NCBI GenBank assembly: GCA_017304655.1
Contig: JAFKLY010000009.1
Span: 1 to 64,000, forward strand
Length of the DNA: 64,000 nucleotides
Source of the DNA: Sphingomonas sp.
Lineage (GTDB): Bacteria; Pseudomonadota; Alphaproteobacteria; Sphingomonadales; Sphingomonadaceae
Direction of reading: 5' to 3'
Shown in pieces: positions 7,580 to 10,131 of the stretch. The translations under genes and the position numbers were made by a program. Position 1 is the stretch's first letter, and every line of letters starts with the position of its first letter. The notes beneath the pieces are model-generated. The model saw nothing but the letters and a program-made list of their open reading frames with translations. It was not told the origin of the DNA and did not search any database.

Positions 7580-8230
7580 TCAGCCGCCGCTGCTCCCGAG
7601 AATATTGATAGTGAACGCCACGATGCCGAGGTTGAAGATGAACGCGGCAAAACAGTGAAACAGCGCGACACGGCGGATCTGCGCGTCGGTGATGTCCACG
7701 TCGCTGGTCTGGAAGGTCATGCCGAGCGTGAAGGAAAAATAGGCGAAGTCCCAATAATCGGGCTCGTCACGCGACGGGAAGGTGAGGCCACCACGATCCG
7801 CACCGGATTTGCCATGCCGATAGAACAGATAGGCGTAGTGGAACGTGTAGACGAGGTTTGAGAACAGCCAGGCAAGCAGCAGCGTCGTCACGACGAGGCC
7901 CAGCATCGCCTGAGACGGGCCTTTGCCGTAGCGAAGCTCCCCGGCCACCACCGACAGCACCACAAGCATGACAATGCTCGTCATCACCAGGATGAGCGTG
8001 CGATTGGCGTCATTGCGCCGGCTGTGCTCCCGCATCCGCACGGCATCATGCTTGAAGAGCGGCGGCATGGTGGCCAGAAAGGCGAGCGCGGCAAGATCGA
8101 ACCCGACCATCACGCCGATGACATGCCCGAAGGCCAACGACAGCGGCCCGATGCTCGCGCACATCAGCAGGAACAGGGCATAGCGCCAGGGCAGGACTGC
8201 GCGACGGCCTGATGCGTCAGCCATCGCCAT
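7580..8230 (-). CDS. DUF1345 family membrane protein
   Basis: A 216-aa inner-membrane protein with about five hydrophobic helices: residues 12-32, 36-55, 80-100, 110-135 and 185-212. The stretch EPDYWDFAYFSFTLGMTFQTSDV is the hallmark of DUF1345, whose function is unknown; the family resembles the pore region of K+ channels without the selectivity filter. ATG at 8230 has GGGG just upstream; ATG at 8224 is also possible. It converges on gshA. The 275 bases upstream, to the aldo/keto reductase start, show no other feature. Confidence 0.85.
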   Translation of the reverse strand: MAMADASGRRAVLPWRYALFLLMCASIGPLSLAFGHVIGVMVGFDLAALAFLATMPPLFKHDAVRMREHSRRNDANRTLILVMTSIVMLVVLSVVAGELRYGKGPSQAMLGLVVTTLLLAWLFSNLVYTFHYAYLFYRHGKSGADRGGLTFPSRDEPDYWDFAYFSFTLGMTFQTSDVDITDAQIRRVALFHCFAAFIFNLGIVAFTINILGSSGG

Positions 8231-8505
8231 GACCCCAGGTTCGGCGCGCGGCACGAGTAGCGCGCCCATCCGGAAAACGGCCTTGCTTGCGCAGGACGGA
8301 CCAACGGTCATGAGGCCTGATCACGAAACCTCCCACGCAAAACCACCCGCTCGTCGCAATCATTGGCCGAGCGGCCCGAACGCCTTCATGACAGGCCATG
8401 TGCCTATTGGATAGCCCGCAGACCAACGTGCCGAAAGCGTTGCCTGCAAACGCGCCTCTCCGGTAAACCGTTCCCTTCTCCAGCCCCTCACCGGAGTCCG
8501 CCATC

Positions 8506-9549
8506 ATGCGCTACAATCAGCTCGGCAATACCGGCCTCACGGTTTCGGAACTGTGCCTCGGCACCATGACCTTCGGGTCAACCGAGGGCCGCTGGGCCGC
8601 CATGGGCCAGCTCGATCAACCGACGGCTGACGCCATTGTGAAGACCGCGTTCGAGGCGGGCATCAATTTCTACGATACGGCCAATGTCTATGCGGAAGGC
8701 ACATCGGAGGAGCGGCTGGGTCAGGCCATCCGCAATGCGGGGCTGGCGCGCGAGGATGTCGTCATCGCCACCAAGGTGCTCGGGCCGATGGGGCCGGGCG
8801 TCAATGCCCGCGGCCTCTCTCGCACGCACATCATGGATCAGGTGAAGGCGAGCCTGCGGCGGCTACAGACCGACCATATCGACCTCTATCAGGTGCACGG
8901 CTGGGACCCGCTGACGCCGGTGGAGGAAACAGTGCGCGCACTCGACGATCTCGTGCGGCAGGGCCATGTCCGTTACGTCGGCGTATCCAACTGGGCGGCC
9001 TGGCAGATCATGAAGGCGCACGGCATTGCCAAGGCGGAGGGCCTCGCCCGGTTCGAGAGCCTGCAAGCCTATTACACCATCGCCGGGCGCGATCTGGAGC
9101 GTGAGCTGGTGCCCATGCTGCTCTCCGAGCGCGTCGGCCTCATGGTGTGGAGCCCGCTGGCCGGCGGCCTGCTCTCCGGCAAGTTCAGCCGCGAGGGCGA
9201 AGGCGAGGGACGGCGCGCGAGCTTCGACTTCCCGCCGGTCGACCGGGAGAAGGCGTTCGACCTCATCGACCTCATGCGGCCGATGGCTGATAAGCGCGGC
9301 GTGAGCGTCGCGCAGATCGCGCTGGCCTGGCTGCTCCACCAGCGCGTCGTGACCAGCGTCATCGTCGGCGTGCGCCGGCTCGATCAGCTCAAGGACAATC
9401 TCGCCGCCGGCGACATCGAACTGAGTACCGGGGAGCTCGCGACCCTGGGCGAAGCCAGCAAGCTCGCGCCGGAATATCCCGGCTGGATGCTCGCCGTGCA
9501 GAGCGGCTATCGCACCGTTCCCGGTGCGAAGCCCTCACGCTGGCGCTGA
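8506..9549 (+). CDS. Aldo/keto reductase
   Basis: NADPH-dependent oxidoreductase of the AKR superfamily, 347 aa, related to the YdjG/Tas and K+-channel beta-subunit branch. The catalytic tetrad region is visible: Asp in FYDTANVYAEG with the Tyr, Lys in VIATKVLG, His in YQVHGWD. The C-terminal VIVGVRRLDQLKDN is the cofactor 2'-phosphate binding loop. Start ATG at 8506 has a GGAG eleven bases upstream. Its last 15 bases overlap the 3' end of a small convergent gene on the other strand. Confidence 0.93.
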   Translation: MRYNQLGNTGLTVSELCLGTMTFGSTEGRWAAMGQLDQPTADAIVKTAFEAGINFYDTANVYAEGTSEERLGQAIRNAGLAREDVVIATKVLGPMGPGVNARGLSRTHIMDQVKASLRRLQTDHIDLYQVHGWDPLTPVEETVRALDDLVRQGHVRYVGVSNWAAWQIMKAHGIAKAEGLARFESLQAYYTIAGRDLERELVPMLLSERVGLMVWSPLAGGLLSGKFSREGEGEGRRASFDFPPVDREKAFDLIDLMRPMADKRGVSVAQIALAWLLHQRVVTSVIVGVRRLDQLKDNLAAGDIELSTGELATLGEASKLAPEYPGWMLAVQSGYRTVPGAKPSRWR

Positions 9550-9801
9550 GGGCGCGGTCAGTCCGTCCTCGACCGTCCGCTCTTCCGGAGCGGGGAGCGT
9601 TTCGTCGTGTCTCTCGCCGGCTGCGCTGCTTTCCTCCGGATTGGACAAGGGAGGTCGGGCAGCGGCAAGGATGTTCATCATCAACATCGTGCCGCTCTCC
9701 ACGAAGCCGATCCCGATCTGGATCGGCAACATCCACAGGGTCATCAGGGTGTCGAGCGTGTGGCCGGCGCGGTCTCCGCTCGGTAGCGTGGCACTCGTCA
9801 T
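9535..9801 (-). CDS. Small hypothetical protein with one amphipathic/hydrophobic helix
   Basis: 88 aa. A hydrophobic, methionine-rich stretch at about residues 15-48 (LMTLWMLPIQIGIGFVES and onwards) is followed by a charged, low-complexity tail. The N-terminal part resembles small phasin-like or membrane-associated proteins of sphingomonads, but I do not recognise a named family. ATG at 9801; no strong Shine-Dalgarno. Its 3' end overlaps the aldo/keto reductase by 15 bases, tail to tail. It is divergent from the EcfG-controlled 47-aa gene at 9988. Confidence 0.55.
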   Translation of the reverse strand: MTSATLPSGDRAGHTLDTLMTLWMLPIQIGIGFVESGTMLMMNILAAARPPLSNPEESSAAGERHDETLPAPEERTVEDGLTAPSAPA

Positions 9802-9939
9802 GGCGTAACTCCGTCTGAGTCGCGGCTGGGCTAGCCGGCCTCATCATTGCGCCTCTCCACGACAGTTTCATGTCCGCAGCCCTGTCCCTCGTCGACAGGC
9901 CTTTGTCCCGCTTGCGCCCGACGGCTCGGCGCAAGGGCT

Positions 9940-9964
9940 GGAACGTCCCGCATCTTCGCGCGTT
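9940..9964 (+). promoter_or_regulatory. EcfG (general stress response) promoter
   Basis: GGAAC at 9940-9944, exactly 16 bases, then CGTT at 9961-9964. This is the consensus of alphaproteobacterial EcfG sigma factor promoters (GGAAC-N16/17-CGTT). The -10 element lies 24 bases before the start of the 47-aa membrane protein gene, with a strong Shine-Dalgarno between. The match is seen; use by EcfG is inferred from the known consensus. Confidence 0.75.
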
Positions 9965-9987
9965 TTGAGCGGGAAAGGAGGCGAAGG

Positions 9988-10131
9988 ATGCAACAAGAGA
10001 TTCACAAGAGCGGCGAGGACGCTCGCGCGGGCAGCACACCACACATTGTGCGCTATGTGCTCAGCGTTTCGCTGGCTCTGGCTGTCCTCGCCATGCTCGT
10101 GCTGCTCTATTGGGGCGCAACGCTCCATTGA
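9988..10131 (+). CDS. 47-aa single-pass membrane protein, probable general stress gene
   Basis: Begins MQQEIHKSGEDARAG, followed by one strong transmembrane segment at residues 23-45 (RYVLSVSLALAVLAMLVLLY). The short polar N-terminus is probably cytoplasmic. ATG at 9988 has the strong Shine-Dalgarno AAAGGAG with 7-base spacing. The gene lies directly behind an EcfG-type promoter (9940-9964), so it is probably induced in the general stress response. Two tandem hairpins follow the stop. Function unknown; no family recognised. Confidence 0.75.
   Translation: MQQEIHKSGEDARAGSTPHIVRYVLSVSLALAVLAMLVLLYWGATLH

What the first reader, a model, noticed from the sequence alone, without database searches (positions are those of the whole stretch)
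9940..10131. 47-aa membrane protein under an EcfG promoter
GGAAC-16 bases-CGTT, exact for the EcfG consensus, is followed at a suitable distance by a strong ribosome site and a very small single-pass protein. Such small stress-induced membrane proteins are poorly described.
Basis: partly seen in the sequence, partly recalled or inferred. Interest (0 to 1): 0.5.

Follow-up and report, generated by a model that had tools for sequence, protein, structure and literature searches.

The report
Stress-switched small membrane protein family
This is a real, conserved 47-residue inner-membrane protein whose gene carries a general-stress (EcfG) promoter and, in many relatives, sits between two master genes of the stress response; what the protein does is still unknown.

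Summary
The finding holds, and relatives make it stronger than the window alone could. The window has GGAAC-N16-CGTT (9940-9964), a ribosome site and a 47-codon gene (9988-10131) for a single-pass membrane protein. The promoter match alone is weak (4 such sites in the window, 1.14 expected). Conservation makes the case: of 34 same-genus genomes with the orthologue, 33 have exact GGAAC-N16-CGTT upstream, and in nine close relatives promoter boxes and ribosome site stand out in unalignable DNA. In 30 of the 34, and in 17 of 17 named Sphingomonas loci, the gene lies between phyR and ecfG, core genes of the general stress response. In the window and three relatives it has moved beside argG and mostly kept its promoter. 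The Sphingomonas melonis Fr1 orthologue (#1446, 'hypothetical protein') is published as strongly EcfG-dependent (log2 ratio -6.2 in the ecfG mutant). No significant Pfam, NCBIfam or PDB match was found. Relatives occur in other Alphaproteobacteria; in the family the gene co-occurs with PhyR/EcfG (78/80 against 9/20 genomes). EcfG control is well supported for the family but untested in this strain. The mechanism is inferred: an EcfG-induced membrane protein whose conserved membrane-face motif probably binds a partner.

The parts
9940..9944 (+). -35 element GGAAC of the EcfG-type promoter
   Evidence: GGAAC in 7 of 9 and a one-base variant in 2 of 9 close relatives, window included
9961..9964 (+). 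-10 element CGTT, 16 bases after the -35
   Evidence: GCGTT invariant in 9 of 9
9974..9981 (+). ribosome binding site AAAGGAGG, 6 bases before the ATG
   Evidence: GAA.GGA invariant in 9 of 9
9988..10131 (+). gene for the 47-aa single-pass membrane protein
10021..10062 (+). codons of the conserved motif ARAGSTPHIVRYVL (residues 12-25), at the presumed cytosolic membrane face and into the start of the helix
   Evidence: R13, G15, R22, L25 invariant in 30 sequences; A12, H19, Y23, V24 at least 90%; topology inferred from charges
10057..10113 (+). codons of the predicted transmembrane core (residues 24-42)
   Evidence: hydropathy maximum; helix 18-46 in the AlphaFold2 model

Best explanation
The locus is a one-gene EcfG-regulon unit of a Sphingobium-like bacterium. 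Under stress PhyR sequesters NepR, EcfG is freed and transcribes this gene from the GGAAC-N16-CGTT promoter. The product is a 47-aa inner-membrane protein with a cytosolic N-terminus and one helix. It belongs to a family without a Pfam or NCBIfam model whose commonest place in the Sphingobium and Sphingomonas genomes sampled is between phyR and ecfG. Shown: the gene, promoter conservation, synteny, and published EcfG dependence of the S. melonis orthologue. Inferred: N-in topology; and that the conserved membrane-face motif (A-R-x-G-x3-H-x2-R-Y) docks on a partner, making it an EcfG-induced membrane modulator of the stress system rather than an unspecific membrane component (this last step about 0.4). 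The confidence below is for identity, membrane nature and EcfG control.
For: 33 of 34 same-genus orthologues have exact GGAAC-N16-CGTT. 30 of those 34 lie between phyR and ecfG (26 of 30; 4 of 4); in L033 Pfam names PhyR upstream and an ECF-type sigma factor downstream. The 80 loci hold 71 exact sites in 1,261,756 positions, and 47 loci have one in that short window. Footprint. Own genome has NepR, PhyR and EcfG. S. melonis Fr1 #1446 lies by number between phyR #1445 and ecfG #1447, log2 -6.2 in the ecfG mutant (PMC6599016, passages); its published 25-base motif occurs in 3 of 295 genomes of the Sphingomonas-like genus, in 3 of 3 directly before this family's gene between phyR and ecfG, and the published distance of 2 bases to the start fits 2 of the 3. 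PhyR_sigma2 in 78 of 80 genomes with the gene and 9 of 20 without (Fisher 7.6e-8).
Against: No expression data for this strain. Two of nine close relatives have a one-base change in the -35. Of the 38 named copies not between phyR and ecfG 11 have no recognisable site, and among the 30 best loci of the order-wide search only 2 of 11 such copies, one of them the window, have an exact site. In Sphingomonas the site is a variant (GGACC or GGAGC), and the S. melonis motif score, 9.76, is just below its authors' cut-off of 10 for direct targets. In Sphingobium the same promoter can be read as the ecfG autoregulation promoter: all three same-genus genomes without an intact gene (G017, G019, G029) keep an exact site before ecfG. 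No direct evidence for a partner or a function. The co-occurrence test ignores relatedness.
Confidence: 0.88

Rival explanations
1. General membrane-protective effector: the protein has no dedicated signalling partner and acts on the bilayer or on envelope proteins during stress, as proposed for E. coli YohP.
For: 38 of 80 named loci are not between phyR and ecfG (one of them, L138, still has ecfG downstream), and 26 of the 38 have an exact EcfG site, as expected of an effector. The C-terminal tail varies from almost none to about 70 residues. Stress-induced membrane-altering small proteins exist: YohP, PMC12719787 (abstract read).
Against: Conservation peaks in the charged segment at the membrane face and the first turns of the helix, which suggests a specific contact; the place between phyR and ecfG in Sphingobium and Sphingomonas is not typical of a generic effector.
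Confidence: 0.4
2. Feedback regulator of the phosphorelay: an EcfG-induced small protein that binds a membrane-bound kinase or PhyT at the membrane, working like MgrB on PhoQ.
For: nepR, phyT and nepR2 of the S. melonis locus are described as feedback regulators under EcfG control (PMC6599016; for nepR2 the stress induction was slightly below the authors' cut-off); the gene lies among them; it co-occurs with PhyR/EcfG. MgrB is a 47-aa membrane protein of the regulon it dampens (PMC8404706, start of abstract in a search listing).
Against: The window's genome has a different kinase beside phyR (574 aa with two hydrophobic segments; 30% identity over 137 residues), so PhyT in particular is not a conserved neighbour. 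No interaction data.
Confidence: 0.35
3. The small ORF is a leader peptide that tunes translation of the downstream ecfG.
For: In Sphingobium it directly precedes ecfG under what may be the ecfG autoregulatory promoter.
Against: It is kept as a protein, often with its promoter, where no ecfG follows: the window, argG-linked relatives, Novosphingobium and Croceicoccus; amino acids are under purifying selection.
Confidence: 0.05
4. The GGAAC-CGTT pair is a chance match and the ORF is spurious.
For: The bare pattern is not rare: 4 in the window against 1.14 expected, 44 in the genome.
Against: Conservation of site, spacing, ribosome site and protein.
Confidence: 0.02

Closest known systems
Sphingomonas melonis Fr1 #1446 (hypothetical protein, PMC6599016 Table 1)
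   Same: Homologous gene (recognised through its published promoter motif), between phyR and ecfG, strongly EcfG-dependent.
   Different: The window's gene lies beside argG instead and has a canonical GGAAC-N16-CGTT promoter rather than the GGACC variant. The Fr1 genome itself was not read.
MgrB of enterobacteria (47-aa feedback inhibitor of PhoQ)
   Same: Size, membrane location, made by the regulon it may feed back on (works-like only).
   Different: No sequence relation was found in the family libraries, though MgrB was not compared directly; feedback is untested here.
YohP of E. coli
   Same: Very small stress-induced membrane protein.
   Different: 27 aa; no relation shown; not part of an EcfG system.
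NepR and NepR2 of the same locus
   Same: Small EcfG-controlled proteins of the PhyR locus.
   Different: They are NepR-type regulators that bind PhyR (PMC6599016); this protein has a membrane helix and no NepR match.

Membership tests
EcfG (general stress response) regulon | GGAAC-N16/17-CGTT promoter at a suitable distance, conserved in orthologues | tested here: met
   33 of 34 same-genus orthologues exact
EcfG (general stress response) regulon | PhyR, NepR and EcfG genes present in the genome | tested here: met
   NepR over cut-off; PhyR and EcfG homologues
EcfG (general stress response) regulon | Transcript reduced in an ecfG mutant | not testable with these tools
   Published for the S. 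melonis orthologue only (log2 -6.2)
Orthologue group of S. melonis #1446 | Homologous gene; in Sphingomonas directly after the published motif, between phyR and ecfG | tested here: met
   3 of 3 genomes with the exact published 25-mer; the window's gene is a homologue by sequence but lies elsewhere
MgrB-like feedback small proteins | Binds and modulates a sensor kinase | not testable with these tools
   no interaction data
MgrB-like feedback small proteins | Sequence similarity to MgrB | tested here: inconclusive
   only indirectly: Pfam and NCBIfam scans gave the window protein no family below E 0.1; no direct comparison with MgrB
NepR anti-sigma factors (PF18557) | NepR domain | tested here: not met
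   Pfam scan of 30 family members lists no NepR; the genome's single NepR match is at C5:116170
Any protein of known structure | Sequence match in the PDB | tested here: not met
   0 matches at E up to 10 with the family profile

The most novel reading that the evidence does not exclude
An unrecognised small membrane component of the alphaproteobacterial general stress response: an EcfG-induced protein whose AR-x-G-x3-H-x2-RY motif at the cytosolic membrane face couples the membrane to the PhyR-NepR-EcfG switch (for example by acting on a membrane-bound kinase or phosphotransferase), old in Sphingomonadaceae and with relatives in several other alphaproteobacterial families.
Probability: 0.25. 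Interest if true: 0.75.

Novelty: new member of a known kind. Interest (0 to 1): 0.52.

Why it matters
The general stress response of Alphaproteobacteria has been studied through PhyR, NepR, EcfG and their kinases. A gene that in many sphingomonads lies between phyR and ecfG, and is in the published top-50 list of EcfG-dependent genes of S. melonis, appears in the text I could read only as a 'hypothetical protein'. It is a conserved family with a clear motif and no Pfam or NCBIfam model, so it can be deleted, tagged and tested at once. If it feeds back on the switch it would add a membrane arm to the pathway; if it is an effector it would be a defined, widely shared small stress protein.

Tried and rejected
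Bare motif statistics: tried and not sufficient.

Base pairing between the promoter spacer and the ribosome-site leader (seen by eye as CCCGATC/GATCGGG and, in the window, TCCCGC/GCGGGA): a swap test with Watson-Crick pairs gave p 0.0034 for 45 distinct sequences, but the signal is in the closely related phyR-ecfG set (19, p 0.016); the 26 copies elsewhere, the window among them, gave p 0.24 (with G-U pairs 0.0084, 0.0014 and 0.53). Not used as evidence.

Leader-peptide reading: rejected for the window. Common neighbours of the 38 named copies outside phyR-ecfG: only lineage-specific ones, such as argG in 6 of 38 and a dapD-like gene (named by eye) upstream in 8 of 38; no partner common to all. 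Pfam and NCBIfam weak matches (E 0.01 to 0.2) are scattered and inconsistent and taken as chance. PF20239, an accession recalled wrongly for PhyR, was searched by mistake and is unrelated. Class-wide relatives: 25 genomes outside the order, 20 of them fetched; 3 of 20 have GGAAC-N16/17-[CT]GTT within 130 nt against 0.18 expected (in L217 only 33 upstream bases were available), 17 of 20 do not, so EcfG control outside the order is only suggested. A fold search with a single helix was judged uninformative and not run.

Full report
What is there. The coordinates and the description are right. The promoter boxes are GGAAC (9940-9944) and CGTT (9961-9964) with 16 bases between; AAAGGAGG (9974-9981) lies 6 bases before ATG (9988); the gene ends at 10131 and encodes MQQEIHKSGEDARAGSTPHIVRYVLSVSLALAVLAMLVLLYWGATLH. 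A longer frame from a TTG at 9847 exists, but the ATG with its ribosome site is the start conserved in close relatives.

Is it more than chance? The motif by itself is not: 4 matches of GGAAC-N15-18-CGTT in the window against 1.14 expected, and 44 of the N16-17 form in the genome against 85 for the backward control. Conservation is decisive. One search covered 61 genomes, own included, and found matches in 37; the main orthologue is in 34 of the 37 same-genus genomes, own included. Thirty of these 34 loci were returned and 29 have exact GGAAC-N16-CGTT 48-63 bases before the start; the other four were fetched and 4 of 4 have it. The exception, G028, has GAAAC. The three same-genus genomes without the main orthologue are G017 (no gene found), G019 (none between phyR and ecfG, only a paralogue elsewhere) and G029 (remnant out of frame); all three still have an exact EcfG site before ecfG, which shows that in these bacteria the site also serves ecfG.

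In nine sequences, the window and eight close relatives, the intergenic DNA aligns poorly, yet GCGTT and the ribosome-site core are invariant and the -35 is GGAAC in seven, with a one-base variant in SYK-6 and S. xanthum. Protein coding is supported by pooled pN/pS of 0.29 in frame, against 1.40 and 2.68 in the two shifted frames (7 sequences, 44 codons).

Where the gene usually sits. In 26 of the 30 loci the gene lies between phyR (upstream) and ecfG (downstream) on the same strand, and in the four further loci as well. In L033 Pfam names the upstream neighbour as PhyR (PhyR_sigma2 4.9e-26, PhyR_sigma-like, Response_reg), the downstream one as an ECF-type sigma factor (Sigma70_r4_2, Sigma70_r2), and the divergent kinase gene as HisKA_2. 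The four that differ are the window and G028, G034 and G032, where the gene lies beside argG. The window's genome keeps phyR, nepR and ecfG on another contig.

Named relatives. A scan of GTDB genomes gave 215 relatives, of which the best 80 were returned: Sphingobium, Novosphingobium, Sphingomonas, Croceicoccus, Altererythrobacter, Rhizorhapis and unclassified MAGs. At least 12 of the 80 are the same contigs as in the 34 genomes above (equal contig lengths), so the two sets are not independent. The closest to the window by identity are Sphingobium sp. 66-54 (76%) and SYK-6 (75%). Of the 80, 42 have phyR and ecfG on the two sides: 21 with exact GGAAC-N16/17-CGTT within 130 nt, 11 with GGACC-NGTT, 1 with GGAAC-NGTT, 9 with none by these patterns. 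Of the 38 others (one, L138, has ecfG but no phyR found), 26 are exact, 1 is near and 11 have none. By genus, 14 of 19 Novosphingobium and 4 of 4 Croceicoccus copies elsewhere are exact, and 5 of 9 Sphingobium copies elsewhere. The 17 Sphingomonas loci are all between phyR and ecfG and carry the variant GGACC or GGAGC with a conserved AAAACG. The 80 loci contain 71 exact sites in 1,261,756 positions of both strands, and 47 loci have one in the 130-nt window before the gene; by my arithmetic the remaining rate predicts about 0.16. An order-wide search gave a weaker picture for copies elsewhere: of its 30 best loci, which overlap these sets, 19 are between phyR and ecfG, and of the other 11 only 2 (the window and L115) have an exact site.

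Published expression. In PMC6599016 (passages, and sections 6 and 59; [quoted passage not shown] The same paper numbers phyT #1443, nepR #1444, phyR #1445, ecfG #1447 and nepR2 #1448. I searched that 25-mer in 295 genomes of the Sphingomonas-like genus. It occurs in 3, and in 3 of 3 it lies directly before this family's gene, between phyR and ecfG, with an ATG 2 bases after the motif in two of them. So #1446 is the orthologue by position, motif and distance; the Fr1 genome itself was not read. The motif score is just under the authors' cut-off of 10 for direct targets, a reservation for Sphingomonas rather than for the canonical site in the window.

Reach of the family. The profile finds it in 185 of 296 genomes of the order, 46 of 79 genera, and in 29 of 289 of the class, of which 25 lie outside the order. 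For 20 of these 25 I fetched the DNA: all 20 have an [AV]-R-x-[GA] ... R-x-[VI]-L core at the start of a hydrophobic stretch; 3 of 20 have GGAAC-N16/17-[CT]GTT within 130 nt (0.18 expected), and 3 lie within about 4 kb of an EcfG-like gene. Among same-family genomes, PhyR_sigma2 (which also picks up EcfG) is found in 78 of 80 with the gene (80 of the 173 such genomes were searched) and in 9 of 20 without it (the 20 that one search listed, of 111 genomes without a match) (Fisher p 7.6e-8). Relatedness is not corrected for.

Anatomy and mechanism. Thirty sequences share invariant R13, G15, R22 and L25 and nearly invariant H6, A12, H19, Y23, V24, S28, L29 and L31. AlphaFold2 gives a short helix at 9-13 (low confidence) and one long helix at 18-46, mean pLDDT 78.6. 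Arginines at the start of the helix point to a cytosolic N-terminus (inference). There is no significant Pfam, NCBIfam or PDB relative. Conservation peaks at the membrane face and the first turns of the helix, which suggests a contact with a partner. The place among known feedback regulators (NepR, PhyT, NepR2) suggests feedback; the many copies elsewhere suggest an effector; I put these at about 0.35 and 0.4. Both begin with EcfG-driven synthesis at the membrane under stress, which is the well-supported part.

Novelty. As a kind of thing, a small stress-induced membrane protein in a sigma-factor regulon, it is known. As a family it has no model, and in the papers I could search I found it only as a line in a table. 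The 2011 study of the Fr1 locus (recalled) is not held, so an earlier mention cannot be excluded.

Noticed in passing
8449-8474 (-) and 7580-8311 (-): A second exact GGAAC-N17-CGTT lies about 140 bases before a DUF1345 gene (Pfam 7.1e-52) on the minus strand; possibly another EcfG target.
   Followed up: no
9535-9801 (-): Divergent 88-aa ORF with a hydrophobic stretch; weak homologues (28-32% identity) lie upstream of the small gene in S. nicotianae, SYK-6 and S. xanthum, so it looks like a real neighbour gene; no Pfam match.
   Followed up: partly
L033 9182-9232 and other Sphingobium loci: After the -10 box a conserved element with CGTTA and TAACG arms (GCGTTAATGATGCGTAACGATCGGGAG in L033) forms a dyad; part of it stays in G019 (L088) where the small gene is gone, so it probably belongs to ecfG control.
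   Followed up: partly
L037, L042, L049, L093: A 73-aa paralogue in four same-genus genomes; three of the four have GGAAC-N16/17-TGTT upstream, a -10 variant reported in Sphingopyxis granuli (PMC7083833, passage).
   Followed up: partly
L109, L111, L112, L119, L122-L124, L126 and the Sphingomonas loci among L160-L206: Sphingomonas copies share a TACGGA[CG]C-x-AAAACG-like element about 30 bases before the start, far more conserved than an ordinary EcfG spacer.
   Followed up: partly
L033 10188-10460: A 90-aa protein with one hydrophobic stretch follows ecfG in Sphingobium, at the place held by nepR2 in S. melonis; L097 has an exact EcfG-type site (5914) before it.
   Followed up: no
L082 8405-8980: In the window's genome a Dps-like gene (identified by eye) with an exact EcfG-type site lies between the kinase gene beside phyR and nepR-ecfG.
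   Followed up: no
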